Below, piece after piece: positions 7,649 to 34,386 of a stretch of 34,386 bases of DNA (positions are counted from its first letter, which is position 1; each line of letters begins with the position of its first letter). The stretch comes from an uncultured Bacteroidales bacterium (GTDB lineage: Bacteria > Bacteroidota > Bacteroidia > Bacteroidales > Bacteroidaceae): NCBI GenBank assembly GCA_902801485.1, contig CADCIP010000042.1:507-34892 (forward strand). Reading direction: 5' to 3'. The translations under genes and the position numbers were made by a program. The notes under the pieces are model-generated. The model made no database searches and had not been told where the DNA came from. It saw nothing but the letters and a program-made list of their open reading frames with translations.

Positions 7649-7863
7649 GCCCCTCTCCAACCCCTAGCCCCTCATCCTCCGTCGCGAGTGGGGACTCGCT
7701 CCCCTTTGTGGGATCGCAGTGACATCCAGTCACTACTCTAAAGACCCCAGTCGCCCCCCAAATGGGAGGTGGGGAAGTCCAAAGTAAGTAAGAGATATTA
7801 ATAAACTGCCAAGCCCCTGTTAGCAGTTCCCTCCCATTTGGGGGAGGGTTAGGGAGAGGGGCC
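7649..7863. repeat. Structured dispersed repeat, copy A (complete)
   Basis: A 215-bp element starting 1 bp after the oxidoreductase stop codon and ending 5 bp before the next ATG. Its ends are imperfect inverted repeats beginning GCCCCTCTCC and ending GGAGAGGGGCC. Inside are hairpins GCGAGT/ACTCGC (7684-7699), AGTGAC/GTCACT (7718-7734), and AACTGC/GCAGTT (7804-7828). The third is enclosed by a perfect 15-bp inverted repeat at 7755-7769 and 7830-7844. A second copy lies at 34182 to the window end, and a degenerate right end at 13891-13928. It has no coding capacity, so it could be a MITE-like element or a mobile structured RNA. Its place inside an operon means it is probably transcribed. Confidence 0.85.
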
Positions 7864-7868
7864 GAGTT

Positions 7869-8627
7869 ATGAAGAAATATATTATAGCAACGGCTATGCT
7901 GGCTGTTCTGCCCGTAGCCGCACAGAAGAAAGTTGTAAAAGAAGTTGCTGCTCCAACTCCAACTACAGATAATGTACTCACCGAGCAGGAAGAACGCGAA
8001 GGCTGGAAACTCCTTTGGGATGGTAAGACCACGGAAGGGTGGCGCGGCGCTAAGTTGGCAGGTTTCCCTGCAAAGGGCTGGCGTATCGAAAATGGTGTGC
8101 TGAAGGTAGAGGCTGCCAATGGTGCAGAAAGTGGGAATGGTGGCGACATCGTAACCAACAAAAGTTATCATAACTTCATCCTGAAGGTTGATTTTAAGAT
8201 TACCGAAGGTGCCAACAGCGGTATCAAGTATTTCGTGGATCCTGATATGAACCAGGGTGAGGGTAGCGCTATCGGTTGCGAATTCCAGATTCTGGACGAC
8301 CTGCGTCATCCCGATGCCAAGTTGGGCGTTAAGGGTAACCGCAAGTTGGGTTCTCTTTATGACCTGATTCCCGCTCCCGAGAACAAGCCCTTCGACATTA
8401 CCACCTGGAACACAGCAATGGTTATTGTAAAGGATAAGCACGTAGAGCATTGGCTGAATGGTGTAAAGTTGTTGGAATACGAGCGCAATACACAGGAGTG
8501 GGACGCACTTGTAGCCTACAGCAAATACAAGAACTGGCCTAATTTCGGTAACCGCGACGGACGCATTCTCTTGCAGGACCATGGCAACGAGGTGTGGTTT
8601 AAGAATGTTAAGATTAAGGAATTTTAA
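7869..8627 (+). CDS. DUF1080 (3-keto-disaccharide hydrolase-type) secreted protein
   Basis: A 252-residue protein with a short signal peptide ([18 protein letters not shown]) and a single concanavalin-like DUF1080 domain. Recognisable parts are [38 protein letters not shown], and [24 protein letters not shown] and [19 protein letters not shown] are also present. The Pfam family is now named for 3-keto-disaccharide hydrolases. These act on sugars already oxidised at C3 by Gfo/Idh/MocA enzymes, which fits the gene just upstream. It is separated from that gene only by the dispersed repeat and abuts the GH92 gene (stop TAA then ATG with no gap), so an operon is likely. The substrate is not known. 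Confidence 0.85.
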
Positions 8628-10949
8628 ATGTTTGCACACATGAGGAAAATCATTCTGTCAACTATTGCCACACTGTTTTGTGTCGGTTCTTTTGCAATAA
8701 CAGACCCCGTTCAGTACGTGAATCCCTTGGTGGGCTCTCACTCTACGGGAGGCTTATCTACAGGTAATACCTATCCCGCGATTGCCCTTCCTTGGGGTAT
8801 GAACTTCTGGACTCCCCAGACCGGTAAGATGGGCGACGGATGGTGTTATACTTATGACGCTGAGAAAATTCGCGGCTTCAAGCAGACCCATCAGCCCAGT
8901 CCCTGGATGAACGACTATGGTATGTTCAACATTATGCCCGAGTGCGGCGAAGATTATATCTTTGATGAGGCTAAGCGCGCGAGTTGGTTCTCTCATAAGG
9001 CAGAGGTGAGCAAACCACATTATTATAAGGTATATCTGGCCGATTACGATATTGTAACAGAGGTTGCTCCTACCAGTCGTGCTGCCATCTTCCGCTTTAC
9101 CTATCCTGCTGGCAAGAGTTACCTGGTAGTAGATGCTTTCGACCGCGGTTCCTACGTAAAGATTATCCCCGAGCAGAATAAGATTGTGGGTTATACCACA
9201 CGTAACAGTGGAGGTGTGCCCCGTAACTTCAAGAACTACTTTGTTCTGCAGTTCGACCGTCCCTTCACCATTACCGCTATTAGCGATGCCGGTCAGGAGA
9301 ACAAGTCTGCACTCGAGACTACCAGCAAGCATGCCCAGGGTGTTGTCGGTTTCAATACCAAGCGCGGCGAACAGGTAAACGTCCGTGTTGCCAGTTCTTT
9401 TATCAGTATTGAGCAGGCCGAGCAGAACCTGAAGGAGTTGAGTAACAAGACCTTGGAGCAGGTTAGCGAGGAAGGCCGTCAGGAATGGAACAAGGTCCTC
9501 TCTACTATCGATGTACAGGACGAGAGCGATGTGGATCGCCTGCGTACTTTCTATAGCTGTCTTTATCGTAGCGTCCTCTTCCCCCGCAGCTTTTTCGAGA
9601 TTAATGCTCAGGGACAAGTGGTTCACTACAGCCCCTATAACGGCGAGACCCTTCCCGGCTATCTCTTTGCCGATACCGGTTTCTGGGATACCTTCCGTGC
9701 TTTGTTCCCCTTGGTGAACCTGATGTGGCCCTCTATGAGTCAGAAGATGCAGGAAGGTTGGGCCAATGCCTATAAGGAGAGCGGTTTCCTGCCCGAGTGG
9801 AGTGCTCCCGGTCATCGTGCCTGCATGGTAGGTAACAACTCAGCATCCGTAGTTGCCGATGCATATCTGAAGGGTGTTCGCGGTTATGATATCGATGCCC
9901 TGTGGGAGGCTGTTAAGCATGGTGCTAATGCCGACCTGCCCAGAACTACCAGTGGACGTAAGCAGTGGCAGACCTATAACAAGTTGGGCTATGTACCTTA
10001 CGATAGCATCAACGAGAGTGCTGCCCGTACCCTCGAATATGCCTTCGACGACTGGAGCATTTATAAGTTAGGACAGGCTTTGGGTAAGCCCGAGAAAGAA
10101 ATCCAGGTTTATGCCGAGCATGCCATGAACTACAAGAACCTCTTTGATAAGAGCCATAACCTGATGCGAGGCAAGTTGGCCAATGGCGAGTGGGCTCCCA
10201 ACTTCAATCCTTTCAAGTGGGGCGATGCCTTTACCGAAGGTAACAGCTGGCATTACTCTTGGAGTGTGTTCCATGACCCTCAGGGACTTATCGACCTGAT
10301 GGGCGGCACAGCCACCTTTAATCAGATGCTCGACAGCGTCTTTATCCTGCCTCCTATCTTCGACGACAGCTACTACGGCGGTGTTATCCACGAGATTCGT
10401 GAGATGCAGATTATGAATATGGGAAACTATGCTCACGGCAACCAGCCTATACAGCACATGATTTACATGTACAACTATAGCGGTCAGCCTTGGAAGACCC
10501 AGTATTGGTTGCGCGAGACTATGAACCGTATGTATAACGCCCATGCCGACGGTTATTGCGGCGACGAGGACAACGGTCAGACTTCTGCATGGTATATCTT
10601 CACTGCTATGGGCTTCTATCCCGTCTGCCCTGGTTCTAACCAGTATGTGCTGGGTGCTCCCTACTTCAAGAAGATGACGATGCATCTTGAGAATGGTAAG
10701 GATGTGGTGATTACAGCTCCCGAGAATAGCGATGAGAACCGTTACGTTCAGAAACTCACCGTTAACGGAGCAGAGCATAAGGTGAACTACGTGAACCATG
10801 CCGACCTGCTGCAGGGTGCCAGAATGGACTATGTGATGGGCCCCAAGGCAAACGAGTATCGCGGCAATACAGCAGAGGCTGCTCCCTATTCCTTCAGCAA
10901 GGAGTACAAGGCAGCACCCCAGAAGGGTAAAAAGAAGTCTAAGAAGTAA
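8628..10949 (+). CDS. GH92 family exo-alpha-mannosidase
   Basis: A 773-residue secreted glycosidase. After the signal peptide comes the typical YVNPLVGS start of the N-terminal beta-sandwich domain. The (alpha/alpha)6 catalytic domain contains GHRACMVGNNSASVVADAY and the TEGNSW motif; Glu537 would be the general acid by family analogy. GDEDNGQTSAWY at about 645-656 has acidic residues that would serve as base. GH92 enzymes are calcium-dependent, inverting alpha-mannosidases that trim N-glycans or yeast mannan; linkage preference cannot be read here. ATG 8628 directly follows the previous stop and has AAGGA 7 nt upstream, while ATG 8640 is an alternative that also gives a signal peptide. The lysine-rich end (KKGKKKSKK) is not a sorting tail. 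Confidence 0.92.
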   Translation: MFAHMRKIILSTIATLFCVGSFAITDPVQYVNPLVGSHSTGGLSTGNTYPAIALPWGMNFWTPQTGKMGDGWCYTYDAEKIRGFKQTHQPSPWMNDYGMFNIMPECGEDYIFDEAKRASWFSHKAEVSKPHYYKVYLADYDIVTEVAPTSRAAIFRFTYPAGKSYLVVDAFDRGSYVKIIPEQNKIVGYTTRNSGGVPRNFKNYFVLQFDRPFTITAISDAGQENKSALETTSKHAQGVVGFNTKRGEQVNVRVASSFISIEQAEQNLKELSNKTLEQVSEEGRQEWNKVLSTIDVQDESDVDRLRTFYSCLYRSVLFPRSFFEINAQGQVVHYSPYNGETLPGYLFADTGFWDTFRALFPLVNLMWPSMSQKMQEGWANAYKESGFLPEWSAPGHRACMVGNNSASVVADAYLKGVRGYDIDALWEAVKHGANADLPRTTSGRKQWQTYNKLGYVPYDSINESAARTLEYAFDDWSIYKLGQALGKPEKEIQVYAEHAMNYKNLFDKSHNLMRGKLANGEWAPNFNPFKWGDAFTEGNSWHYSWSVFHDPQGLIDLMGGTATFNQMLDSVFILPPIFDDSYYGGVIHEIREMQIMNMGNYAHGNQPIQHMIYMYNYSGQPWKTQYWLRETMNRMYNAHADGYCGDEDNGQTSAWYIFTAMGFYPVCPGSNQYVLGAPYFKKMTMHLENGKDVVITAPENSDENRYVQKLTVNGAEHKVNYVNHADLLQGARMDYVMGPKANEYRGNTAEAAPYSFSKEYKAAPQKGKKKSKK

Positions 10950-10961
10950 ACATTCTTTCTT

Positions 10962-12410
10962 ATGAAAAAAATAGTAACCATATTGTATGCAACGGTTTGT
11001 GTCGGCAGTCTGTCAGCACAGACTTTCACCATCACCGATTCCATGCAGTGGAAGGCATACGACGACTTCAACAGCGCCCTGTTGGATAAAACACGCAATA
11101 TCTATAAGGCCGACACAGAACAGAAGGCTGCCGACCACCGAGGCAACGGAGCACGCGACAACGACCGTTCCGGTTGTGCTGCCGCCATCTGGTGTCAGGC
11201 TATCTATTACGATATGGTCATCAATGCCTACAATCGTGCTAAGAACGAAGGTAATGAAGACCTGATGAAGAAGTACAAGACCCTGCACGATAGGATATAT
11301 GGTGGTGAGAAATCCCATTATGTCAACTTTAACTTCGATGACCCCAATACTAATAACGGATGGTTTGTTTATGACGATATCATGTGGTGGACCTGTGCCT
11401 TGGCTCGTGCATACCAGACTTTTGGAAAAGCAGAATATCTTACCAATTCCGAGAAGAGTTTCTGCCGTGTTTGGTACGGAAGTGCTAAGGTGGGCGATGA
11501 CGGTTCTTATGCCGATCCTGCCCGTTTCAGCGGAAAGTACGGCGGTGGAATGTTCTGGGAGTGGCAGCCTATTGCTAAGGCCAATCCACACAAAGAGGGC
11601 GATTTCCGCTCTGCCTGTATTAACTTTCCTACTGTTATAGCAGCCTGTCTGTTACATCAGTTGGTTCCTGAAGGCAGAGCTGTACCTACAGCGGCCCGCC
11701 CTACCCGTCAGACCAAGGAATGGTACTTGGAGAAGGCTATCGAGATTTACGACTGGGCCAGTAAGACTTTGGCTCCCACCAATGGTCGCGTAGCAGACGG
11801 AATTCACGGCGGCGGCCCCGAATATTCAGACCATCTGTATAATCAGGCTACATATATTGGTGCCAGTTGCCTGCTCTATAAACTTACGGGCGAGAATAAG
11901 TATCGTACCAATGCCATAAACGGCACACGCTATGTTTTTAACAGCATGGTAACCGGTACGGCAAAGATTCTTAATTTCGAGAACGGTTACGAGCAAGGCG
12001 TCTATGCGGCTATCTTTGCCCAGTATCTCCCGATGGTAGTATATGATCTGGGGCAGAAGTCATACCTTACTTATATTCAGCGTAACATGCAAAAAGCGTG
12101 GGACAATCGCGACCAGACACGTGGTCTTCAGGCAGGCAATTTTAATAAGAAGACCGCCGAGACGGATGTAGTGGAGAGTTACGGTGGTAGTGGAATGCCT
12201 GCCCTGATGCTAATGTTCCCTGCCCATATTTCAGCCGATGACATACAGGATGGCTTAGAGGATATTCCCTCAGGAGCAGTTGGCTTTAATTCCGACGTTT
12301 ACACCATCGATGGTAAACTGGTTATGAAGGATGCAACCCTTGGCCAGGTCGGAAATTTAGATAAAGGACTCTACATCTACCAGCAGAAGAAAATGCTGGT
12401 TAGAAAATAA
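10962..12410 (+). CDS. GH76 family endo-alpha-1,6-mannanase-like protein with T9SS-type tail
   Basis: A 482-residue protein with a signal peptide ending near SLSAQ and a GH76 (alpha/alpha)6 domain. The family's catalytic Asp-Asp pair is visible at residues 138-139 (WFVYDDIMWWT). Other conserved parts are GMFWEWQ, HGGGPEYSDHLYNQATYIGA and YGGSGMPALM. GH76 enzymes cut alpha-1,6-mannan backbones, which suits the GH92 gene 12 bp upstream. The last 45 residues (VYTIDGKLV through GLYIYQQKKMLVRK) look like a short T9SS C-terminal sorting domain, so it may be delivered to the cell surface. It is the last gene of the operon and is followed by a hairpin terminator at 12439-12473. Confidence 0.85.
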   Translation: MKKIVTILYATVCVGSLSAQTFTITDSMQWKAYDDFNSALLDKTRNIYKADTEQKAADHRGNGARDNDRSGCAAAIWCQAIYYDMVINAYNRAKNEGNEDLMKKYKTLHDRIYGGEKSHYVNFNFDDPNTNNGWFVYDDIMWWTCALARAYQTFGKAEYLTNSEKSFCRVWYGSAKVGDDGSYADPARFSGKYGGGMFWEWQPIAKANPHKEGDFRSACINFPTVIAACLLHQLVPEGRAVPTAARPTRQTKEWYLEKAIEIYDWASKTLAPTNGRVADGIHGGGPEYSDHLYNQATYIGASCLLYKLTGENKYRTNAINGTRYVFNSMVTGTAKILNFENGYEQGVYAAIFAQYLPMVVYDLGQKSYLTYIQRNMQKAWDNRDQTRGLQAGNFNKKTAETDVVESYGGSGMPALMLMFPAHISADDIQDGLEDIPSGAVGFNSDVYTIDGKLVMKDATLGQVGNLDKGLYIYQQKKMLVRK

Positions 12411-12438
12411 GTCGTAGTCTGTGTTTATAATTAGTTTC

Positions 12439-12476
12439 TCGCTCCTCAGTAAAGTTCTTTTATTGAGGAGCGAATA
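12439..12476 (+). terminator. Terminator of the glycan operon, overlapping the 3' end of the PfkB gene
   Basis: A perfect 10-bp inverted repeat, TCGCTCCTCA at 12439-12448 and TGAGGAGCGA at 12464-12473, is followed by ATATTTT on the plus strand. The left arm contains the stop codon of the convergent kinase gene (TGA at 12448-12446), so both transcripts would run through the hairpin. Confidence 0.7.
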
Positions 12477-13444
12477 TTTTCCCATGTCTTGTCAGAGAGT
12501 CGTGTCCCAATCACCTGAATAACATTTGTTGCAACTAAATCTCCCATCTTTAGGCATTGCTCTAACGATGCTCCTTTGCAGAAACCGTACAGAAATCCTC
12601 CTGAAAAGAAATCTCCTGCACCCGTAGTGTCCACAACCTTAACTTTCGATGTAGGAGTGTAAGCCTCTGTGCCGTATTTGTCCGACGAAGCTCCCCACAT
12701 AGCCATAGCACCTTTGCTACCCAGTTTCACTATGGTCAGGTTGCACAGTTGGGCTATACGTCTCATTCCTTCTTTGGCATCCGCCTCTTCCGTGAGGGCA
12801 GCACATTCCTCCTCGTTGGCAAAGACAATGTCTATATACTCTTCTAACAGGTGAAGAAACAGGGGACGAAGGGTTTGTGCCAGGTTGTAACTGCCCAGAT
12901 CGATGCACAGCGTCAGTCCTTCTTCTTTGGCTGTCCTGCATATTTTCTCTATCAGTTCACGGTTTAAAATCAGGTAACCCTCAATATACAGAAGGTTGTA
13001 ACCGTGGAACATATCAGGTGTTATCTCCTCGGGTCGCATCTGAGCCGCTGCACCCAAGTACGTTCCGAATGTCCGTTCTCCGTCGGCAGATATAAAGGTG
13101 TTGGCCACTCCCGAAGGTGTATCGCATAAGCTAAGTTGTGTCTGTATGCCCAGTTGCTTGAACGTCTCGGCAAAGAAACTGCCCGTTTCGTCTCTTCCTA
13201 TCTTTCCTATAAATCCAGGTGTGACACCTAAATTCGCTAGTGCCAGCATGGTGTTGCTTGCACATCCGCCTGTAGCTCTGTGTGGGTGTAGCGCTTTCAT
13301 GTGCAGGTGCAATTCGCGCATTCGTTCATCGTTAATAGGTGTCATGCCGCCTTTCGGGAGCTGTAGTGCGGTAAGCATTGAATCATCATTTATCTGCACC
13401 AATACATCTACTAATGCGTTGCCAATTCCAATTATTTTCTTCAT
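12446..13444 (-). CDS. PfkB-family carbohydrate / nucleoside kinase
   Basis: A 332-residue cytoplasmic ATP-dependent kinase of the ribokinase fold. The first PfkB signature region is GGCASNTMLALANLG from residue 59. The second is DTTGAGDFFSGG at 272-283, with Asp278 as catalytic base and GAGD as anion hole. Bacteroidales homologues are often labelled adenosine kinase, but fructose, ribose and other sugars are equally possible. The start is placed at ATG 13444 (KKIIGIGNALVDVL). Upstream codons run into the promoter, which has a TATCTTTG on the minus strand at 13469-13462. It converges on the mannan operon and is divergent from the tRNA-Asn pair. Confidence 0.9.
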   Translation of the reverse strand: MKKIIGIGNALVDVLVQINDDSMLTALQLPKGGMTPINDERMRELHLHMKALHPHRATGGCASNTMLALANLGVTPGFIGKIGRDETGSFFAETFKQLGIQTQLSLCDTPSGVANTFISADGERTFGTYLGAAAQMRPEEITPDMFHGYNLLYIEGYLILNRELIEKICRTAKEEGLTLCIDLGSYNLAQTLRPLFLHLLEEYIDIVFANEEECAALTEEADAKEGMRRIAQLCNLTIVKLGSKGAMAMWGASSDKYGTEAYTPTSKVKVVDTTGAGDFFSGGFLYGFCKGASLEQCLKMGDLVATNVIQVIGTRLSDKTWENIRSSIKELY

Positions 13445-13461
13445 TTGAATCATTTTTTTTG

Positions 13462-13469
13462 CAAAGATA
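13462..13469 (-). promoter_or_regulatory. -7 box of the PfkB kinase gene
   Basis: TATCTTTG on the minus strand, 17 bp before the start codon, would give a very short leader. No clear -33 box sits at the 20-nt spacing. It overlaps the region of the tRNA-Asn promoter pointing the other way. Confidence 0.5.
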
Positions 13470-13500
13470 TTGCATATTTCCAAAAAATGCTATACTTTTG
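13470..13500 (+). promoter_or_regulatory. Promoter of the tRNA-Asn pair
   Basis: TTG at 13470-13472, a 20-nt spacer and TACTTTTG at 13493-13500 lie 29 bp before the first tRNA-Asn, matching the spacing seen at tRNA-CAU and ribF. Confidence 0.75.
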
Positions 13501-13529
13501 CACCGCATTTGCAACAAAACTTTAATTTT

Positions 13530-13603
13530 GCTTCAGTAGCTCAGTTGGTTAGAGCACATGACTGTTAATCATGGGGTCGTTGGTTCAAGCCCATCCTGAA
13601 GCG
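13530..13603 (+). tRNA. tRNA-Asn (GTT), copy 1
   Basis: A 74-nt cloverleaf with a perfect 7-bp acceptor stem GCTTCAG/CTGAAGC, D stem GCTC/GAGC, anticodon stem CATGA/TCATG, and loop CTGTTAA (anticodon GTT). The T arm is GTTGG-TTCAAGC-CCATC with one T-T mismatch. The discriminator is G and CCA is not encoded. Confidence 0.95.
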
Positions 13604-13632
13604 CAAACAAGAGAAGTTAGCGAATGCACCCT

Positions 13633-13706
13633 GCTTCAGTAGCTCAGTTGGTTAGAGCACATGACTGTTAATCATGGGGTCGTTGGTTCAAGCCCATCCT
13701 GAAGCG
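13633..13706 (+). tRNA. tRNA-Asn (GTT), copy 2
   Basis: Identical over all 74 nt to the copy 29 bp upstream, including the T-stem mismatch. It is probably co-transcribed with copy 1 from the promoter at 13470-13500 and ended by the hairpin at 13709-13740. Confidence 0.95.
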
Positions 13707-13708
13707 CG

Positions 13709-13740
13709 AAAGCCGAGACAAATCTCGGCTTTTTCTTTTT
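13709..13740 (+). terminator. Rho-independent terminator of the tRNA-Asn transcript
   Basis: An 8-bp stem AGCCGAGA/TCTCGGCT (13711-13718 and 13723-13730) with a 4-nt loop is followed by TTTTCTTTTT. Confidence 0.9.
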
Positions 13741-13782
13741 CAGGTACTTTCACCAACACCTCATTGGTCGTAGGTCTTACGT

Positions 13783-13835
13783 CTATTAATACTTACAATA
13801 ATTTCTATTAATAGCAGCACTTTTTCCTATTAATA
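13783..13835. repeat. Three CTATTAATA iterons at exact 22-bp spacing
   Basis: CTATTAATA starts at 13783, 13805 and 13827, so each is 22 bp (about two helical turns) from the next. Sequence between the boxes is not conserved, as expected for binding sites on one DNA face rather than for a duplicated longer unit. Confidence 0.7.
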
Positions 13836-13890
13836 CCTGCAAATAAGGGCGTTTTGCAATCTTTTGAAAATGTAAAGATTATTCTTTCTT

Positions 13891-13928
13891 GTTAATACTC
13901 TCCCCTTTGGGGGAGTCGGAGAGGGGCC
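13891..13928. repeat. Degenerate right end of the dispersed repeat
   Basis: This stretch runs GTTAATACTCTCCCC, TTTGGGGGAG, then GGAGAGGGGCC. It follows the right end of the elements at 7649 and 34182 with substitutions and a lost hairpin. The rest of the element is absent. Confidence 0.55.
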
Positions 13929-14137
13929 TTTTTCCTCCCACACTAAGCAGTGAAAAATTCCTAACGTGGGAGTAAGTTTTTCATGGTTAAGCAGTAAAAA
14001 ACGGCTTGTTAAGTGGTTTTCTGATTTTGTAATGATAATTCCTTTTTCTCTTCTTTTCCGAAGATGGTTTTATGAAAAATAACCTAACATATACCCTAAA
14101 TGGCTACAAGCTCCGATGGTTATCGTTCTCATGCGAT

Positions 14138-14323
14138 GTTACCTGTTGTCGCAACAGGTAACTAACACCTCACTAACAGGTAACTCATCATAATCTTGAA
14201 ATCATAATTTTCTGATGTTACCTGTGTGTTACCTGTTAGTTACCTGTTAGGCAAACAGGTAACACGCTGTCATCACCGATGGTTGTCGGTACAATCACTA
14301 TCTTAAGTTAGGTGTTACCTGTT
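14138..14323. repeat. Array of eight GTTACCTGT boxes
   Basis: Plus-orientation boxes start at 14138, 14217, 14228, 14239 and 14314. Minus-orientation boxes (AACAGGTAAC) are at 14153-14162, 14175-14184 and 14254-14263. The plus boxes at 14217, 14228 and 14239 are exactly 11 bp apart and the two adjacent minus boxes are 22 bp apart. Two pairs form 25-bp palindromes of equal geometry, 14138-14162 and 14239-14263. This looks like a multi-site binding region for a DNA-binding protein. It starts about 390 bp upstream of vsr. Confidence 0.85.
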
Positions 14324-14489
14324 TTGCGAATATTCAATAATTTCCAGCCCCGTGAGTCTGCACTTGCTGATCCCCATTTATCTGATATCCTATCAGTTTT
14401 CCATATCATACAGAATGGAATCAAGAACATTTGTTGAGGTGTGAATCACTTTTTCTTCGACAGACAAAAGTCTATGTTAGAATAATCCT

Positions 14490-14497
14490 TATCTTTG
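14490..14497 (+). promoter_or_regulatory. -7 box (TATCTTTG) before vsr
   Basis: TATCTTTG lies 29 bp before the vsr start codon at 14527. No TTTG sits 20 nt further upstream, so the -33 part is weak. Confidence 0.45.
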
Positions 14498-14526
14498 CAG
14501 TAGAAATTCGAGTAAGATATATCCCT

Positions 14527-15084
14527 ATGGACCGCCTGACTCCACAACAACGACATTCAAACATGGATGCTATCCGCAGTAAGGATACGAAGCCTGAGAT
14601 GATTGTGCGGCGTGGGTTGTGGAGTAGAGGATTCCGATATCGTTTGAACTATAAGCGGCTGCCTGGGCATCCGGACCTGGTGCTGAGGAAATACCGTACG
14701 TGTATCTTTGTGAACGGGTGCTTCTGGCACGGACACCACATCCATTTGCCATTTGACCATTTACAATTTACGATTGAGGATTCGGAGTGCTGTAAGATTC
14801 CGAAGACGAACAGGGAATTCTGGGTAGCGAAGATTCGGAGGAACATGGAGCGGGACAAGGAAGAGCAGCGGAAACTGGCGGCAATGGGTTGGCATTGCAT
14901 CACCATCTGGGAATGTGAGTTGAAACCTAAAGTCAGAGAGCAGACGTTGGAATCACTTGCTTTCACGCTTAATCACATCTGGCTGCAAGACAGAGGATGT
15001 AAGATGGCTGATGTAAGAAGTAAGATGTACTCTCAGTTGGAAGAAGAAGGTGAGAATTACCTGAAAGTAGCGGAGGATGTATGA
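14527..15084 (+). CDS. vsr: Very short patch repair (Vsr) endonuclease with in-frame insertion
   Basis: Vsr nicks DNA 5' of the T in G-T mismatches that arise from deaminated 5-methylcytosine. The 185-residue product starts MDRLTPQQRHSNMDAI, has the catalytic aspartate at residue 50 (PGHPDL), and NGCFWHGH at 63-70. NREFWVAKIRRNMERD sits at 95-110 and WEC at 128-130. Compared with the E. coli enzyme, the segment between GCFWHGH and PKT is 14 residues longer. The extra 42 bases are a degenerate heptanucleotide array (14736-14777). The C-terminal tail is also partly encoded by heptamer repeats, and the stop codon itself lies in one. No cytosine methyltransferase gene is next to it, which is unusual for vsr. 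Whether the insertion next to the zinc-binding region is tolerated is unclear. Confidence 0.88.
   Translation: MDRLTPQQRHSNMDAIRSKDTKPEMIVRRGLWSRGFRYRLNYKRLPGHPDLVLRKYRTCIFVNGCFWHGHHIHLPFDHLQFTIEDSECCKIPKTNREFWVAKIRRNMERDKEEQRKLAAMGWHCITIWECELKPKVREQTLESLAFTLNHIWLQDRGCKMADVRSKMYSQLEEEGENYLKVAEDV
14736..14777. repeat. Degenerate heptanucleotide array inside vsr
   Basis: Six consecutive 7-mers can be read: CCACATC, CATTTGC, CATTTGA, CCATTTA, CAATTTA, CGATTGA (the first is the least certain). The total of 42 bases matches the 14 extra residues of this Vsr relative to E. coli, so the array appears to be an in-frame insertion. Confidence 0.6.
14996..15030. repeat. Heptanucleotide array in the 3' end of vsr
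   Basis: Five 7-mers in a row: GATGTAA, GATGGCT, GATGTAA, GAAGTAA, GATGTAC. They encode part of the non-conserved Vsr tail. Confidence 0.75.
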
Positions 15085-15103
15085 TGGAAGATGTAAGATG
15101 GAA
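15076..15103. repeat. Heptanucleotide array across the vsr stop codon
   Basis: Four 7-mers: GATGTAT, GATGGAA, GATGTAA, GATGGAA. They are the same family as the array at 14996. The vsr stop TGA (15082-15084) is formed at the junction of the first two units. Confidence 0.75.
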
Positions 15104-15142
15104 GTAGGTGAGATAATATCACAAAAACAAAACGAAGAGACG

Positions 15143-16081
15143 ATGAAACAGATTATGACAATCATTTTGGCAGCGATGTTGTTGGCTGCCTGTGGAAACA
15201 AGGAAAAGCAGTTGCAGGAACGGGCTGCAGAGTTGTGTCAGTTTATTCCTGACCATGAACTGCAGGAGGAGTCGAAGGCTTTTATGACGTCAGACTTCTA
15301 TGCCGTGTTGGACACGATGTTCAATCGTCTGCCAGAACATGAGGCGATGGATCATGAGTGGCTGTACTACTTTGTGACGGGTAATGGCGGCTCGATAGCC
15401 GACTACGAGGTAGTGGGGGTGCAGCTGACGGATGATGCTCATGCTGTAGCGACCGTCAAGGTTCGGCAGAAGTGGGAGGACGGTTCGTTCGACGAGAGCA
15501 GCGACATCGAAGAACACAAGCTATATATGGAAAAGGTGGACGGACGGTGGCTGATATCCGATTTTGACGACCATAAGAAGGACTGCATCCGCCATATCGC
15601 CATCAGTCGCAAAGAACAGGCTCTGCGCCTTGCGATGAGTGACTATTTGGTGAAAGAGATTGGCACACGCTATCTGCAGGGACAGGTGTGCATCCCCACG
15701 CTGCTGATTGTGGCAGAGGAGGAGAAAGGTGACAACACGCTTGTCTGGTGCGACAGCTGGGTGTACTGGTACAACGTAGCCGGCGATACGCTGAAGACGG
15801 TGTCGGGAGGCAATCATTCCGGCTGCATGACCATTCAGCAGAAGGATAGCAAACCCGTGGTGACGGTGTTTGAACAGACGGTTGATGGGACAGGAAATGA
15901 GACCAGTGCCAAGCGCATCTTTGGTAAGCACTTCGATGTCTTTCAGAACATGAACGGCAACCAGGAAGTGCGTGAGGCTGCTCGCAAGGAACAACTACAA
16001 TGGTATGTCCGCCAGCACGACATGAAGATTCGTTTCTATCAGGACTACAGCTGGCCCGCAGTGGCTTTAGAAGAAGGCTGA
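15143..16081 (+). CDS. Bacteroidales lipoprotein of unknown function
   Basis: A 312-residue predicted lipoprotein with signal peptide KQIMTIILAAMLLAAC and lipobox L-A-A-C. The first half (to about residue 150) alternates strands and helices and includes HAVATVKVRQKWEDGS and DGRWLISDFDDHK. This resembles the NTF2-like DUF3828/DUF4878 group, though only weakly. The second half contains VWCDSWVYWYNVAGDTLKT and GGNHSGCMT, and ends MYQDY-like (RFYQDYSWPAVAL); I recognise this as a recurrent Bacteroidales arrangement without a known function. The ATG at 15143 is chosen because the signal peptide starts there; codons further upstream lie in the heptamer array. It is probably anchored in the periplasm or on the surface. 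Confidence 0.75.
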   Translation: MKQIMTIILAAMLLAACGNKEKQLQERAAELCQFIPDHELQEESKAFMTSDFYAVLDTMFNRLPEHEAMDHEWLYYFVTGNGGSIADYEVVGVQLTDDAHAVATVKVRQKWEDGSFDESSDIEEHKLYMEKVDGRWLISDFDDHKKDCIRHIAISRKEQALRLAMSDYLVKEIGTRYLQGQVCIPTLLIVAEEEKGDNTLVWCDSWVYWYNVAGDTLKTVSGGNHSGCMTIQQKDSKPVVTVFEQTVDGTGNETSAKRIFGKHFDVFQNMNGNQEVREAARKEQLQWYVRQHDMKIRFYQDYSWPAVALEEG

Positions 16082-16121
16082 TGGCTACGAACTCTACTAC
16101 TTTTTCTAATAAAAACAGATT

Positions 16122-16467
16122 ATGAAAAGGAATTCTTTATTTTACGTTTTAGTATTGCTGTGTGCAGTGGTACAATGAGCATGGGCACAAGCGCCGACGC
16201 CTTCCACCGAGTTGGAACCGTATATTACGACACTGAGCAACCGAATGGTCTGTAAGCTCAACTACCCATCGACCAGCGTGACAGACGACCCCGTTGTGCT
16301 ATATGCGTTACTACTTGGACGACAACGGCATCAGCTATGGTGTTACCACCGACCACCGCGAGGACCTGGTTACCTTACCCGTTGTACTTCCCATGATTAT
16401 TAACGGCATGATTGTCAGCAATCCTTACATGCCTTGTTTTTTCAATTTGTTTAGCGTCAGAAAGTAA
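16122..16467 (+). pseudogene. Remnant of a secreted protein (in-frame stop plus frameshift)
   Basis: From ATG 16122 a good signal peptide reads KRNSLFYVLVLLCAVVQ, then TGA at 16176-16178, then AWAQAPTPSTELEPYI, continuing in frame to DPVVL near 16298. After that the plausible sequence continues in the next frame (MRYYLDDNGISYGV from 16303) to a stop at 16465-16467. One nonsense change plus one frameshift, and a product of only about 110 residues, indicate a decayed and probably truncated gene. The mature start (ELEPYITTLSNRMVCKLNYPS) resembles secreted alpha/beta-hydrolase-like proteins of Bacteroidales, but the family cannot be fixed. Confidence 0.65.
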
Positions 16468-16516
16468 GTTAAATAATAAATTATCCAAGTTGATTCTTAT
16501 AATAAAGAAAAACGTG

Positions 16517-16524
16517 TATCTTTG
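16517..16524 (+). promoter_or_regulatory. -7 box (TATCTTTG) before the carboxypeptidase-regulatory-like gene
   Basis: TATCTTTG sits 27 bp before the ATG at 16552. A TTG at 16490-16492 lies 24 nt upstream, longer than the 20 nt seen at the clear promoters here. Confidence 0.45.
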
Positions 16525-16551
16525 CAGTGGACATTAAACATTCGACTTGAT

Positions 16552-17610: not shown

Positions 17611-17693
17611 AAAACAATCAACAATGCCATATACCTTATTAATATTAATGATATAAGGATGCAAGTGCACTGGTCATTCTTACGTCATTATTG

Positions 17694-17836
17694 ATGCTAA
17701 TAATGATTCCTCTGTTAATCGGTGCTATTGTGGAATATCATTCTTTTTCTTGGACTGTTTCTCTGCCATACTTGTGTCTGGCTACATGATAGGTCGCCGT
17801 ACCGAACGTCGCAGGAAAGCCGCTTCGAAGAACTGA
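17694..17836 (+). pseudogene. Possible frameshifted small membrane protein
   Basis: The first frame reads MLIMIPLLIGAIVEY. After a frameshift near 17735-17750 a second frame reads FSAILVSGYMIGRRTERRRK and ends KAASKN. Joined, these give a short hydrophobic segment followed by a basic tail, like small single-pass membrane proteins. The evidence is only the look of the two pieces. Confidence 0.3.
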
Positions 17837-25200: not shown

Positions 25201-27840
25201 ACGTGAACAGGAAGCTTATATGCAGGATATGGTAGATCAGATGGTTGACATATACCAGAGCGGCAGTGCTACGGACGAAGAGGTTCAGCAGTGGATTGAC
25301 AAAGTGAAGCAAGACCCCTTCTACCTGCTTACCTATGGCGAGGAGCCTGTACAAACAGACGGCGTATTCCAGCTTTCTACACCGGCTAACCTGGTATGGT
25401 TCTCTTATTATATAAATAATGTGGCAAAGAAGGCCCGCGTGAAGGCCGTTCTTACAAACGACATCGATATGTCTTCACTCTCTAACTTCGTACCTATCGG
25501 AACCTATATCCAGGGCGTAAACGAGAATGAATTTGTCGGTGAGTTCGACGGTCAGGGGCACGTTATCCGTAACCTCAGTGTGGATGTTTACGACGGACGT
25601 GAGGCTGGTTTCTTCGGACGTGCCTTGGATGCAACAATCAGGAACGTAGGTATTGTAAATGCCAAGATTGTAAATTCTGCTAGTTTCCGTGCCGGCGTAT
25701 TGGGCGGTGAGATTCACAGGGCAAACGTGATTAACTGCTATGTTACAGGTGATCTTCTGATAGAAACCGATCATGACCAGCATGCGGGTATTGCCGGAGA
25801 ATGTGCCTCAACTGCCGTACGCAACTGTTGGACTTCCTATCCCGAACTGACCAATGCTGCCAGCATAGAAGAGAACTGTTTCTATGGCGAAGAGGCCGAG
25901 GCCATCATGGCAACCGGTGAAATGGCATTCCGCCTGAACGGTGACCAGAGTCAGATCTCATGGTACCAGACCATCGGAGAGGATGCCTATCCCGTATTGG
26001 ATCAGACACATGGTGTAGTCTATCTGAAGGGCGAAGTGGACTGCGGTGGCAATAGTGTAGGTGATGTGACTTATACCAACGAGAAGCAGGATGTAGTATT
26101 GCCCGAACATCAGTACAACGAGGATGGTATCTGCATCGTCTGCGGTGCTGATGGCGGTAAGTGTGCTCCTGCCGAGGACGGTTACTTCCATCTGACCAAT
26201 GCATACCAGTTACGTTATTTCGCGAACTATGTCAATGGTGTGGACGAGAATGCCAAGGCACGTCTTGAAAACGATATAGACATGAGTGTAATAGAGAACT
26301 TCCCCATGTTGGGACGTTATTCAGACTACCTGCCCAATTCACGTGTATTCCGTGGCGAGTTCGACGGACAGGGTCACGTTATCCGCAACCTGAAGGTAAC
26401 GGTGGACGACCGCTGGGAGGCCGGATTCTGCAGCCGTAGCTCTGGTGCTACAATCTGTAACCTACCATCACTAATACACATTCCGATGGCGTGCGTGCTG
26501 GTATTCTGGGCGGTGAGTTGCATTTGACCAATGTCTATAACTGCTGGACATGCGGTGACCTGGAGATTAATACCACCCATAGTCAGAAGGGCGGTTTCGG
26601 TGGCGAGGCAGCAGGTGCCAACTTCTACGGGTGCTGGACCACTTACAAGAATATCGGTGCTATGGCTACTCCCTACAATTCCTATGCCGGTGACGAGGTT
26701 GCTGCAACCATCGGTACTGGAGAACTCTGCTACAACCTGAATGCCGGAAAAGTAGTTTCTCCCGCATGGCGCCAGACACTGGGAGAGGATGCGCATCCTG
26801 TTCTTGATTCTTCGCACAAGGTGGTATTCCTTGACGAGGACGGTATCTATACCAACGGTAACAGCAAGCTCCCCGAGCAGAAGGGTACCCAGGACGATCC
26901 GTTCGTCATCATGAGTGTCAACGACCTGCTTTCTCTTAACGACTATCTCTCTGCAGACCAAATCAACTTTGTACAACTGGGTGTAGATTTGGATATGGCT
27001 AAGGTTTCGGGATGGGAACCCATCTGCAATAATACTGTGTTTGCCATCGACTTCGACGGACAGGGGCACACCATCAGTAATCTCACTTGCAATGCAGCTT
27101 CTTCTTATAACAGCTTCTTTGGTGTGCTGAACGGTAACCTTCGCAACATCGGCTTCGAGAATATGACGGTAGCCGACGGTGACCGCACGGGTATGATTGC
27201 AGCAAAGGTAGGCTTCGAGGACAACCGTATGGAGTCTGTAATAGAACATGTATATGTAAACGGAACCCTTACCTGTGCCGGTGCATACGGCGGTGGTATG
27301 TTCGGTAAGATTGACGGACACACTATCATCAAGAACTGCTATGCTAATGTGGCTATCAACTCTACTGCCACTTATACAGGCGGTATTGTGGGTCAGGTTG
27401 GCGGTCTGCTATTGATGGAGAATGTCTATGCAGCCGGTTCCTCTACCCGTGGCGGCGGTATTGTAGGCGGTGGTCAGACCAGCGAAACACCTGCTTCTAC
27501 ATACAAGAATGTGGCTGTATGGAACAATGATTACGAAATCTTTGGTCGCACCGTTCGCGGAGATGTAAAGCAGGGTGTTATTTTCTACGACAGCACCAAC
27601 TTCTCAGATATGCAGAAAGCCGTTGTGGCATGGGATGCGTCTGTATGGTCGTGCGACATGGAGGAAGGCAGCTATCCCGTACTCGTAGGCTCTGCCAATA
27701 CACCGGATGCCATCGAGGACGTTAACGTCAGCGAGAACGGGAACGTACGAGATATCTATGACCTCACTGGCCGCAAGGTCAATTCTCAGTTGAAGAAGGG
27801 AATCTATATTGTAGGAGGAAAGAAAATTCTTTTCAGATAA
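22250..27840 (+). pseudogene. Giant GLUG-repeat surface protein with T9SS tail, split by a frameshift near 26465
   Basis: The first frame (22250-26527, 1425 residues) has a signal peptide. Two GLUG blocks follow, each with the order FDGQ-H-I-N, RAGVLGGE, GEA, NCYT, GELCYKLN and WYQTLGEDAYPVLD. A helical region comes next, then a galactose-binding-like module at about 700-880, more helices, a third GLUG block, and the start of a fourth. After NATIC-N-L near 26462 the frame breaks. The missing sequence resumes in another frame (TITNTHSDGVRAGILGGE, continuing to 27840) with further GLUG repeats. It ends in a T9SS tail (IYDLTGRKVNSQLKKG through KKILFR). Alignment with sister repeats suggests that a 16-22 bp deletion removed the GLUG core. 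As it stands, the first half lacks the sorting tail and the second lacks a signal peptide. Confidence 0.8.
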
Positions 27841-27868
27841 CAAAGGCTGGCCCTGTTTTTTTCAGGGA

Positions 27869-27903
27869 ATATCCCGAGTGGCGTATGCTGCTCGGGATAT
27901 TTT
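27869..27903 (+). terminator. Terminator after the split GLUG gene
   Basis: A perfect 10-bp stem, ATATCCCGAG (27869-27878) and CTCGGGATAT (27891-27900), with a 12-nt loop, is followed by TTT. It is probably partial, as the next gene starts only 26 bp later on the same strand. Confidence 0.65.
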
Positions 27904-27928
27904 AAAGACAAAATAAGAAAAAACTGCT

Positions 27929-30826
<2,898 letters not shown>

Positions 30827-30971
30827 CATCAACGAGGGCAGTTAAAGTATATGGGGGCGGTGTCATAATCTTATATAATTAAGTCATTTTCTAACCATAA
30901 TAAACATATATACAAGCTATTTTTGCTTTGGAATTTAATAAACAAGTTATACGAACTTAACTATTTACTTT
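30827..30971 (+). promoter_or_regulatory. Intergenic region with -7 box before the second GLUG gene
   Basis: TATTTTTG at 30918-30925 fits the -7 box and leaves a leader of about 40 nt to ATG 30972. No TTTG is found at the 20-nt position. Confidence 0.5.
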
Positions 30972-33900
30972 ATGAAAAAACTTTGTACTTTCCTGCTCGC
31001 AGCTTCCTTTTGCTTAGGCAGTGCAGCTATTGATCAGGACGGAGAGTGGTATCTGATTCGTACCTCTCAGGACCTGGTGGATTATTCAAACATTGTGAAC
31101 AATGAAAACAATCACGCTAAGGCTCGTCTGATGAACGACATAGACATGTCCGGTGTCGAGAACTTTACGCCCATCGGCCTCTTTGCCGATAACGACGGTG
31201 CACAGACAACTTTCCAGGGCGAGTTCAACGGAAACGGCTTCGTGGTAAAGAACATGACCGTTAAAATCGAGAATTACGAGGTGGGAATGTTCTCACGTAT
31301 TCAGGGTGGCAGTGTGTACAACCTTGGTGTTGTGAACTCTCATTTTGAAAGTACCGACGGTAAGCGTGCCGGTGCCCTTGGCGGAGAGATCCTGTTTATT
31401 ACAGTTTCCGGTTGCTTTGGCGTGAACAACGAGATTGTTACAACAAGTGACCAGAAAGGCGGATTGGCCGGTGAGGCTGCCGGAGATACACGCTTCAGCC
31501 GTTGCTATACCGACTATTCTGTTCTGTCCGGCAACTTGGGCCTGTTGATTGACAACTCGAAACAGGATGTCCCGGTCGAAGACATTATGAGCGGTAAACT
31601 ATGCTTCGAGATGAATAACTTCCATACCTATACTCCTCTTTGGCGTCAGGACCTGAAGAATAACGGCTATCCTGTAGTCAGCTCAAATGCGCCTCAGGTT
31701 ACAAAGCTGCTGGAAAGCGACACCTATACCAACGAGCATAACTTTGTGGACGGTGTTTGCCGCGAGTGTGTGGATTTCTTCTATCAGGAAGACTATATGA
31801 CTCCTGCTGCTGACGGCTACTTCCATATTTCCACTCCCGAGCAACTGATGTGGTTCAGTGTCTATGCCTGTCACTTCCACCAGGGCGCTAAGGCCAAACT
31901 GACAGCCGACATAGATATGAGTGGCATTAAGGACTTTTATGGCATAGGTCTGTACGAAGACGGCGGCGAGAATTATGTCTATGCCGGTACATTCGACGGT
32001 CAGGGACACGTTGTCAGCAACCTTACAGTTTACCGGGACAACAAGATAGAGACCGGTTTCTTTGGCAGGGCCTCAGGAGCAAATATCTCAAATATTGGTT
32101 TTATGGGTGATATCACCATCACCAATACGCAGGGCATCCGTGCCGGTGTACTTGGCGGCGAATTGGAAAGATGCACCATCAACAATGTCTTTGTCCGTGC
32201 CAATTCTATTACCTATAACACTACCAACGCACAGAAAGGTCCTTTTGGAGGAGAGGCTTCAAACAGTACTTTCACCGGTTGCTATACTACGGAGTCCACT
32301 TTTGTCGGAGGACTGGGTGCTTTCAATAAGTGCTTTAATAATGCTGAAGGCTATGTTGATGCAAATGCTGCTACTGGTAAGCTATGTGCCGAGTTGGGGA
32401 CAGGCTGGTATCAGAATATCGACAATGGTCAGCCCGTTGATGAATGGCCTACACTCAATGCCACTCACGCTCCCGTATTCCCCTCCTGCGATGGTTTGAG
32501 CTTCTCTAATACCAGTGGTCATAACTACCTGAATGGTATCTGTCAGAACGAGGGCTGCCTGAATATCTACGAAGAGCCCGGACGTGATGATGAACTCGAT
32601 GCCTTTACCATTGGCAACCTAGGCCAGTTGATTCGCTTCTCTCAGATTGTCAATACACAGAATCAGAATGCTAACGGTTCTCTGGTTGGTGACATCGATA
32701 TGGAGTTTAGCGACAAGTTTTCTCCTATTGGCCTGAACAATGATGCAGATAAATCAACTCCTTTCAGGGGCAGATTCTATGGTAACAACCATGTGATTCG
32801 CAATATTTATGTGAAGACCGACTGCGAGGGAGGACTCTTCTCTCGCCTGATTGGAGGGTACATCGAAAACTTGGGCATTGAGAACGGACACATAGAGAGT
32901 ACCGCCAATCTGCGCTGCGGTGCTATTGTAGGTGAACATCACGCCAATGCCTGGCTCAAAAATTGCTTCGCCCGCGGTAACTTCGAATTTGTAACTGCTC
33001 ACGAACAGAAGGGCGGACTCTGCGGTGAGGCAGCAACAGGCTTCTTCGAGAACTGCTACACCACTTTGCCTGTCATTTCCTGTGCCTATCCCGGTGACGG
33101 TAGGGCAGACAACTGCTACGAGGGTGTGACAGCAGAGCTGGCAGCCAGCGGAGAACTTTGCTATAAGTTGGGTGCAGCTTTCCGTCAGAATATAGGCGAG
33201 GATGCTTACCCCGAACTCGACCAGACTCATGGTATCGTGAAGGTGATTTCCGAAGCAGGCTATGCTACGATGTACATTCCCGAGGCTGTAGATGCTCCCG
33301 AAGGTGTCGAGGTTTATACAGGTAGTATCTATAACGACAAACTGGCACTGAATGCCGTAGAAGGTTCTGTTCCCGCTTGGGAGCCAGTTGTGCTGAAGGG
33401 TGCTGCCGGTTTCTATAGCTTCAAGCCCGCTGCAGGTGCAGAGAAGAGCGTGACTGTGGACTTCTCCGCTATGGGCTTTGAAAATACACAGGAACTTTCC
33501 GGTACTATTACAGTGGATGATTTGGACATCAACTTCGACCTCGGCGAGGGAGTTACCACTCCTAAGTACTACAATTCGGGTACAGCAGCACGCATCTATG
33601 GCGGCAACGTTCTTTCAGTCTATGCTTTAGATCAACCTATCACCAAGATTGAATTTAACTTTGGCAAGAGCAATGCTCCAACCAGCAGCGATGCAGTATT
33701 CAACAGCGGTGAGTTCGACTTTGAGACCTACACATGGACTGGCAATGCCGAGACAGTGACTCTGACCCGCAATGCAGCCGGTGGTCACTATCGCTTGGTA
33801 AGCATGATTGTTACCTATGTAAGTACACCTGCCAATATCGAGGGCAACGACCTCTTGGGTGCTGCAGAAGACATCGAGGCTGCCGGTAAGTATGTTCTGG

Positions 33901-34178
33901 CTCAGCCCGAAGGCAAGCCCGTAGGCTTCTATCTGGCAGACAAGGGTACCATCAAGGAAGGCAAGGCTTACTTGGAAGGTGCTGCTGGTGTGAAGGCCTT
34001 CTATCCCTTCGAAGAAGAAGGTGAGACCGGCATTGAAAGCCTCACCCCAACCCTCTCCGAAGGCGAAGGAGTTGTTTACGACCTCGCTGGCCGCAAGGTT
34101 AATTCTCAATTCTCAATTTTCAATTCTCAATTAAAGAACGGTATCTTCATTATTGATGGTAAGAAAGTGCTGAGATAA
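30972..34178 (+). CDS. GLUG-repeat surface protein with T9SS tail
   Basis: A 1068-residue protein with signal peptide KKLCTFLLAASFCLGSAA. Three GLUG blocks follow (about 20-250, 275-515, 535-755). Each contains DIDMSG/DIDMEF, FDGQGH-V or its variants, a RAG-x-LGGE or RCGAIVGE element, GEA and NCYT/GCYT. Two H-N-(F/Y)-x-x-G-x-C linkers join the blocks. From about 755 comes a beta-rich module (SEAGYATMYIPEAVDAPEGVE onwards), then another to about 1000. It ends with a T9SS tail, VYDLAGRKVNSQ through IDGKKVLR. GLUG repeats are beta-solenoid-like units found in surface adhesins and proteases; no protease motif is present. The tail is lengthened by heptamers at 34101-34128. It is the intact counterpart of the split gene at 22250. 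Confidence 0.85.
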   Translation: MKKLCTFLLAASFCLGSAAIDQDGEWYLIRTSQDLVDYSNIVNNENNHAKARLMNDIDMSGVENFTPIGLFADNDGAQTTFQGEFNGNGFVVKNMTVKIENYEVGMFSRIQGGSVYNLGVVNSHFESTDGKRAGALGGEILFITVSGCFGVNNEIVTTSDQKGGLAGEAAGDTRFSRCYTDYSVLSGNLGLLIDNSKQDVPVEDIMSGKLCFEMNNFHTYTPLWRQDLKNNGYPVVSSNAPQVTKLLESDTYTNEHNFVDGVCRECVDFFYQEDYMTPAADGYFHISTPEQLMWFSVYACHFHQGAKAKLTADIDMSGIKDFYGIGLYEDGGENYVYAGTFDGQGHVVSNLTVYRDNKIETGFFGRASGANISNIGFMGDITITNTQGIRAGVLGGELERCTINNVFVRANSITYNTTNAQKGPFGGEASNSTFTGCYTTESTFVGGLGAFNKCFNNAEGYVDANAATGKLCAELGTGWYQNIDNGQPVDEWPTLNATHAPVFPSCDGLSFSNTSGHNYLNGICQNEGCLNIYEEPGRDDELDAFTIGNLGQLIRFSQIVNTQNQNANGSLVGDIDMEFSDKFSPIGLNNDADKSTPFRGRFYGNNHVIRNIYVKTDCEGGLFSRLIGGYIENLGIENGHIESTANLRCGAIVGEHHANAWLKNCFARGNFEFVTAHEQKGGLCGEAATGFFENCYTTLPVISCAYPGDGRADNCYEGVTAELAASGELCYKLGAAFRQNIGEDAYPELDQTHGIVKVISEAGYATMYIPEAVDAPEGVEVYTGSIYNDKLALNAVEGSVPAWEPVVLKGAAGFYSFKPAAGAEKSVTVDFSAMGFENTQELSGTITVDDLDINFDLGEGVTTPKYYNSGTAARIYGGNVLSVYALDQPITKIEFNFGKSNAPTSSDAVFNSGEFDFETYTWTGNAETVTLTRNAAGGHYRLVSMIVTYVSTPANIEGNDLLGAAEDIEAAGKYVLAQPEGKPVGFYLADKGTIKEGKAYLEGAAGVKAFYPFEEEGETGIESLTPTLSEGEGVVYDLAGRKVNSQFSIFNSQLKNGIFIIDGKKVLR
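34101..34128. repeat. Heptanucleotide array in the T9SS tail of the second GLUG protein
   Basis: Four 7-mers: AATTCTC, AATTCTC, AATTTTC, AATTCTC. It has the same position and the same unit number as the array in the CotH gene, with the seed AATTCTC coding for the conserved N-S-Q of the tail. Confidence 0.85.
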
Positions 34179-34181
34179 AGA

Positions 34182-34386
34182 GCCCCTCTCCAACCCCTAA
34201 CCCCTAATCCCTCCGTCGCGAGTGAGGACTCGCTCCCCTTTGTGGGGCCGGAACCACATTCAGTGGTTCCTCTAAAGGCCCCAGTCGCCCCAAATGGGAG
34301 GCGGGGAAAGTTGGAGAATAATTGTACAATAATACTAACATAAACTGTCATACCCCTGTTTACAGTTCCCTCCCATTTGGGGGAGG
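34182..34386. repeat. Structured dispersed repeat, copy B (cut by window end)
   Basis: Starts 3 bp after the stop codon of the GLUG gene and follows copy A from GCCCCTCTCC onward. Hairpins: GCGAGT/ACTCGC (34218-34233), GGAACCAC/GTGGTTCC (34250-34270), and AACTGT/ACAGTT (34343-34367). The last lies inside a 14-bp inverted repeat (34288-34301 with 34369-34382). The second and third stems differ in sequence from copy A but remain fully paired. Confidence 0.85.

What the first reader, a model, noticed from the sequence alone, without database searches (positions are those of the whole stretch)
7649..34386. Dispersed repeat whose hairpin stems covary between two copies
Copies at 7649-7863 and 34182-34386 share their ends and layout. 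Yet stem 2 is AGTGAC/GTCACT with loop ATCCA in one, and GGAACCAC/GTGGTTCC with loop ATTCA in the other. Stem 3 is AACTGC/GCAGTT versus AACTGT/ACAGTT. Several positions changed on both sides with pairing kept, while loops and the 14-15 bp outer stem are conserved. That points to selection on a folded RNA or single-stranded DNA rather than simple decay of a palindrome. Both copies start 1-3 bp after a stop codon, and one sits inside an operon. It could be a MITE mobilised by a hairpin-recognising transposase, or a mobile 3'-UTR RNA.
Basis: seen in the sequence. Interest (0 to 1): 0.72.

Follow-up and report, generated by a model that had tools for sequence, protein, structure and literature searches.

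The report
Tiny folded element invading bacterial palindromes
Rumen bacteria carry an 80-letter piece of DNA that folds into hairpins, keeps its folds while its letters change, and appears to have inserted itself repeatedly into other short palindromes and even into its own copies; what moves it is unknown.

Summary
Its shell is a pair of inverted REP-like palindromes (REPIN-like). Inside the left arm sits a separate ~80-nt core: a CGTC-tagged hairpin (hp1) and a longer hairpin with ATTCA loop and CTCTAAAG bulge (P2/hp2). At the orthologous site of window copy 7649, relatives G084 and G113 have the intact palindrome without the core; 7 of 14 own-genome copies queried gave such core-less REP sites. 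Over 59 divergent copies 95.7% of stem cells pair, with 215 two-sided changes against 59 by shuffling (0/500). G·U pairs are rare and matched by A·C (12 v 18), unlike tRNAs here (12 v 2), which favours DNA hairpins over RNA. The 3' junction is constant, the 5' junction ragged. Cores also nest in one another at the same site, in two bacterial families. The RAYT/IS200 idea is not supported: Y1 transposase is about as common with the core (37/78) as without (25/61), and 12 of 16 copy-rich genomes show none. Best reading: a non-autonomous mobile element recognised as a folded strand, enzyme unidentified. Enzyme-free template switching remains a serious rival.

The parts
7649..7673 (+). Left REP-like arm of the shell (C-rich), starts 1 bp after the TAA of the upstream gene
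   Evidence: same sequence present without the core in G084 and G113 (one substitution in each)
7674..7754 (+). Core 1, the inserted piece (81 nt; stands in place of 2 nt of the empty site)
   Evidence: site S1: absent in G084 (L266) and G113 (L267)
7684..7699 (+). hp1: GCGAGT-GGGG-ACTCGC behind the CGTC tag
   Evidence: 100% and 98.3% of helix-1 cells pair
7709..7749 (+). P2 outer stem TGGG/CCCA enclosing hp2 and the CTCTAAAG bulge
   Evidence: longest outer helix 4.80 bp on average v 3.66 with right halves shuffled
7755..7774 (+). Top and 3' arm of the interrupted REP hairpin
7804..7828 (+).
7829..7863 (+). Right REP-like arm, inverted relative to the left one (seen by eye)
   Evidence: dispersed on its own in the genome
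34182..34386 (+). Copy 2 of the composite, cut by the contig end; continues on contig C23 (L009)
34210..34287 (+). Core 2 (from the CCTCC box to the final TCG; its left edge is not fixed by an empty site)
   Evidence: the RGIG6899 copy L038 with the same 3' flank holds a second core nested in it
34250..34270 (+). hp2 of copy 2: GGAACCAC-ATTCA-GTGGTTCC

Best explanation
The core is a ~80-nt non-autonomous mobile element of Bacteroidales. Its single strand folds into hp1 and a P2/hp2 hairpin (a three-way junction in another family). Something in the cell recognises the fold and the conserved unpaired letters (CGTC-G, CCCC, ATTCA, CTCTAAAG), not the stem letters, and inserts the element immediately 5' of a C-rich stretch: in the C-rich 5' arm of REP hairpins, or at the CCCC between the two hairpins of another core copy. 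Shown: dispersal, core-less REP sites, one orientation relative to the C-rich arm, constant 3' end and ragged 5' end, nesting, covariation. Inferred: that insertion rather than loss explains the sites (the empty palindromes are intact and at several sites shared by two relatives), that single-stranded DNA is the form recognised, and that a trans-acting enzyme exists.
For: Core-less REP sites for 7 of 14 own-genome copies queried, plus one between two relatives. Constant right junction, variable left junction, read by eye. Cores nested in cores in 11 loci, with at least four different left junctions; reciprocal nesting in genus g58. Covariation with no ATTCA-type loop inverted in the 59 rows. 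Species-specific amplification: 18 matches at E <= 0.001 in the own genome, 36 in G095 and 31 in G094 at E <= 1e-5; core in 78 of 139 congeneric genomes. Hairpin of 4 bp or more at the 3' edge in 36 of 62 copies v 18-20% of control positions. WC/GU/AC = 720/12/18 on 59 copies (789/15/18 on all 65) against 110/12/2 in 11 tRNAs.
Against: No candidate enzyme was found: Y1 shows no association; among recurrent neighbours (HU-HIG, DUF3987, DUF559) only HU-HIG was tested, and 4 of 56 HU-HIG places lie within 1 kb of a listed core against about 1.1 expected, too few to name a partner. No target duplication, and 0-3 target letters are usually lost, unlike clean Y1 transposition. Within a copy, left and right flanking arms do not match each other better than those of other copies (z = -0.7). 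26 of 62 copies lack a 4-bp hairpin at the 3' edge. No intermediate, excision or expression data. The C-rich edges would also serve as microhomology for template switching. Direction (gain v loss) was not polarised on a tree.
Confidence: 0.55

Rival explanations
1. Enzyme-free spread: replication stalls at a REP hairpin, the nascent strand switches at a C-run to a REP that carries a core, copies it and switches back. Template switching within each hairpin also keeps the stems Watson-Crick, so covariation partly reflects mutation, not only selection.
For: C-rich edges, ragged left junctions and small target losses; chimeric and nested copies; almost only Watson-Crick pairs; no enzyme found. PMC8794818 (abstract, opening and one section read) reports that template switching can create and maintain hairpins with compensatory changes.
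Against: Loops and linkers stay fixed while stems diverge across subfamilies, and no ATTCA-type loop is inverted in 59 rows, which points to selection on the element; PMC8794818 also finds loop inversions rare in rRNA, so this is weak. The right junction falls at the same place in each site that I could read.
Confidence: 0.22
2. A functional RNA: the core is a structured 3'-end element of mRNAs (stability, termination or protein binding), spread with REPs and kept by selection.
For: Upstream gene co-oriented in 74 v 29 cases, 21 of 74 within 35 nt of its end v 2 of 29; strong fold of window copy 1 (z = -5.9).
Against: G.U pairs rare and about as frequent as A.C; 34 of 141 copies lie in mechanical ORFs of 100 aa or more; patchy presence among congeners; no Rfam family near its gathering score on the element. 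Orientation may be inherited from the REPs.
Confidence: 0.13
3. A REP/REPIN-type element moved by RAYT (Y1 HUH) transposases.
For: REPIN-like shell; two Y1 genes in the own genome.
Against: No co-occurrence (37/78 v 25/61, p = 0.49), 12 of 16 copy-rich genomes without detected Y1, no core within 15 Y1 loci scanned. MAG incompleteness weakens but does not remove this.
Confidence: 0.05

Closest known systems
REP / REPIN elements (PMC3116915 abstract; PMC3733652 abstract, passages and two sections)
   Same: Dispersed palindromes, often downstream of genes, paired in inverted orientation; the shell here fits this layout
   Different: The core is not a simple palindrome, has two hairpins with conserved unpaired motifs, lies inside REPs, and shows no RAYT link
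CGTC-tagged REPs (PMC3733652)
   Same: CGTC before a hairpin (hp1); no dedicated transposase reported; that paper also reports REP dimers lying within other palindromes
   Different: Stem mostly starts with G-C, not AT pairs, and has no CCA tail; a second larger hairpin is part of the unit
Insertion sequences that target REPs (PMC1525189 abstract)
   Same: REPs as insertion targets
   Different: Those are transposase-coding IS; the core is ~80 nt, too short for one
Integron attC sites (PMC3053210 passages)
   Same: Works like: fold and unpaired bases are recognised on one strand
   Different: No R/L boxes seen by eye, no cassettes; an integron integrase was not searched for

Membership tests
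REPIN (shell only) | two inverted REPs separated by a spacer | tested here: met
   by eye: 7649-7673/7755-7774 and 7829-7863 are inverted copies; core-less orthologues G084 and G113 show the same pair
REPIN/RAYT | associated Y1 RAYT gene | tested here: not met
CGTC-REP | unpaired CGTC tag at one end of a stem-loop | tested here: met
   hp1 (CGTC in most rows, some CGTT, CCTC, CTTC)
CGTC-REP | stem of 8-9 bp starting with AT pairs, CCA tail | tested here: not met
   hp1 stem about 5-6 bp, first pair G-C in 55 of 59 rows, followed by TCCCC in most rows; definition
Classical MITE | terminal inverted repeats and target-site duplication | tested here: not met
   by eye: core ends are not inverted repeats, no duplication, 0-3 nt lost
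Integron attC | R/L boxes (RYYYAAC/GTTRRRY) around folded arms (recalled definition) | tested here: inconclusive
   looked for by eye only; no such boxes seen
Known structured RNA families | match to an Rfam 15 model | tested here: not met
   window at gathering score; window 7600-7920 and 12 loci at permissive E: nothing near gathering score on the element
Mobile element with dedicated transposase | transposase in cis or correlated in trans | tested here: inconclusive
   only Y1 and one recurrent neighbour family tested over genomes

The most novel reading that the evidence does not exclude
A previously undescribed class of self-nesting mobile element, defined by a covarying two-hairpin or three-way-junction fold rather than by terminal repeats, that carries its own target (CCCC between its hairpins) and inserts with a fixed 3' end and a ragged 5' end, as if copied into a primed target, by an enzyme not yet known.
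Probability: 0.3. Interest if true: 0.82.

Novelty: new variant of a known kind. Interest (0 to 1): 0.62.

Why it matters
It offers a natural series of filled, empty and nested sites in related genomes for a structure-recognised mobile DNA, so the open question of how transposase-less REP-like repeats spread can be tested. It also warns that compensatory changes in dispersed repeats need not mean RNA: here the pairing statistics look like DNA.

Tried and rejected
RAYT/Y1 as mobiliser: rejected on co-occurrence and adjacency. HU-HIG, DUF3987 and DUF559 genes recur beside cores; HU-HIG was followed up in five genomes: 4 of 56 places lie within 1 kb of a listed core against a rough expectation of 1.1 (for G095 and G075 only cores on some contigs were entered). 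This slight excess is left open; no partner is claimed. DUF3987 and DUF559 were not tested over genomes. Copy-specific pairing of the flanking arms: tested and not found. Rfam: nothing. Viral contigs: three exact patterns, no hit. Papers: in eight searches the listed titles and abstracts, at most 12 each, describe nothing like this element; subscription journals and preprints are not covered.

Failed or repaired analyses: one search used malformed flanks (some were whole loci) and is superseded, which keeps 62 of 74 items; the tRNA control was out of register and is replaced, where the register with fewest mismatches of three was taken (11 tRNAs, 132 pairs). Rows dropped: one search lists 100 copies; 81 full-length ones gave 47 after removing near-duplicates, of which A1 holds 40, the seven others (truncated or composite) being left out by hand. 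A2 holds 59 of 65 deduplicated of 93 chosen copies; the six left out by hand hold 3 of the G.U pairs, so I recounted with them: 789 WC, 15 G.U, 18 A.C, 16 other, p = 5e-5 and 0.022 against the tRNAs instead of 2.6e-5 and 0.008. The reading does not change.

Full report
What is in the window. Copies at 7649-7863 and 34182-34386 are real and lie 1 and 3 bp behind stop codons. Folded alone, copy 1 is far more stable than shuffles (z = -5.9; copy 2 -4.0). A BLAST of copy 1 against its own genome gives 61 matches at E <= 10; the two window copies are the only ones matched (nearly) end to end, the others match mainly the middle (about query 28-109) or an end. So the repeat is modular.

The core. An exact-pattern scan of the species-genome collection returned 70 stretches, all but one titled as Bacteroidaceae, Prevotellaceae or Bacteroidales MAGs, many from ruminant forestomachs; one is titled Coriobacteriaceae and may be misbinned. 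They share a C-rich box, GTCG, hp1, CTCCCC in most, then P2/hp2 with ATTCA loop and CTCTAAAG bulge, ending TCG before a C-rich stretch; some are truncated or chimeric. A covariance model finds 20 matches in the own genome at E <= 1, matches in 78 of 139 congeneric genomes at E <= 1e-6, in 22 of 201 family genomes from 7 of 30 genera at E <= 1e-4, and in one of 24 genomes of other families, weakly (8.8e-4). Some species have their own amplified subfamily: 36, 31 and 24 copies in G095, G094, G075. A wider model over 393 genomes of the order hits the own genome and three genomes of one genus of another family (g58), 11 matches each, all 11 scored candidates being hits, so the true number may be higher. 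There the CTCTAAAG bulge is replaced by a further hairpin and P2 is longer, a three-way junction by eye.

Covariation. With hp1, hp2 and the outer stem on 40 copies: 97.6% of 720 cells pair, 73 two-sided changes v 16.2 +/- 3.2 in shuffles (0/500) and 1-5 when slid. With hp1 and hp2 on 59 copies of all subfamilies: 95.7% of 765 cells, 215 two-sided changes v 59.2 +/- 8.8 (0/500), slides 18-38. Other measures are less extreme: the number of pair types is reached by 168/500 and 32/500 shuffles, and pairs with a two-sided change by 13/500. The outer stem varies too: longest helix 4.80 bp on average v 3.66, maximum 4.05, with right halves shuffled. Sampling is not neutral: the pattern fixed part of stem 2, and the genome searches used a model with this structure.

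DNA or RNA. Over hp1 and hp2 the cells are 720 Watson-Crick, 12 G.U, 18 A.C, 15 other on 59 copies, and 789, 15, 18, 16 on all 65. An RNA of either strand should tolerate its own wobble. Eleven tRNAs from the same loci give 110, 12, 2 and 8; the differences have p = 2.6e-5 and 0.008 for 59 copies, 5e-5 and 0.022 for 65. The control is small. I read this as favouring a DNA hairpin.

Empty sites. Flanks of 14 own-genome copies were searched in four relatives (G139 gave no match) and the sites read. For seven copies (loci L001 = the window copy, L007, L010, L012, L016, L017, L018) at least one relative has a REP hairpin without the core. For the window copy both G084 and G113 lack it, the palindrome CCTCCCCCAAATGGGAGG being intact, while G074 lacks the palindrome as well. 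L013 and L006 face a core-less REP-like stretch of different sequence in G113 and G074 and are not counted; L004 and both L011 copies are filled in a relative, the first L011 copy by a different subtype; at L014 the relatives show neither REP nor core; L003 stayed unresolved. A further pair (L083 filled, L042 empty) is among relatives. The insert ends ..TCG before CCCC, CTCC or CCTT in each; the left junction varies by a few letters, and 0-3 target letters are usually missing (read by eye).

Nesting. In 11 loci a second core sits inside a type I core just before its CCC(C)-TTTGT-GGGG hairpin (TCTGC loop in one); ten show the left junction, of at least four kinds. L012 lacks the nested core that its orthologue L068 has. 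In g58, L301 has an ATAC-type core inside an ATTTT-type core and L302 the reverse, again just before CCCC with loss of about four letters of hp1. The same rule in two families makes one ancestral accident unlikely.

Targets and context. A hairpin of at least 4 bp starts at the 3' edge in 36 of 62 copies v 18-20% of control positions; most of the other 26 show only 3 bp there. Of 141 non-redundant copies, 34 lie in mechanical ORFs of 100 aa or more; elsewhere the upstream gene is co-oriented in 74 and opposite in 29 (p = 1e-5), 21 of 74 within 35 nt of its end v 2 of 29 (p = 0.019). Since REPs themselves favour gene 3' ends (PMC3733652, abstract), orientation may be inherited.

Enzyme. Y1_Tnp is found in 62 of 139 congeners: 37 of 78 with the core, 25 of 61 without (p = 0.49); of 16 genomes with nine or more copies, 12 have none. 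No core was found in the 15 Y1 loci scanned. Recurrent neighbours gave no convincing partner; HU-HIG shows a slight excess, 4 of 56 places within 1 kb of a core v about 1.1 expected. MAGs are incomplete (61-100% in the lists seen), so a single absence means little; the pattern is what counts.

Reading. I conclude a mobile, fold-recognised, REP-invading element, with template switching as the main rival. I file the shell as REPIN-like and the core as a new variant of short palindromic mobile DNA, not as a CGTC-REP, MITE or Rfam RNA, each of which fails a tested feature; attC was judged by eye only.

Noticed in passing
L005, L170, L182, L184 (own genome C74, C56; G030; G034): Several cores sit next to 5S rRNA gene ends, and three of them (L170, L182, L184) are flanked by inverted fragments of the 5S 3' end (5S recognised from memory, not by a search).
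   Followed up: partly
L037, L043, L051, L054, L057, L061, L063, L064, L079, L084, L086 (RUG606 and kin): Cores stand beside repeats of a short CCCCTATAGGGCGTT unit and, where complete, have an extra hairpin in place of CTCTAAAG.
   Followed up: no
window 13529-13710: Two nearly identical tandem tRNA genes 103 bp apart (99% over 79 nt).
   Followed up: no
window 14137-14264: Dense direct and inverted repeats of the word AACAGGTAAC/GTTACCTGTT.
   Followed up: no
window 27744, 30709, 34064: Three large proteins share a repeated coding motif near their C-termini (D4), and a 49-nt coding repeat recurs six times between 22494 and 32023.
   Followed up: no
L013/L092 and L011/L044: At orthologous gene ends, relatives carry a different REP plus core subtype at almost the same position behind the stop codon.
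   Followed up: partly
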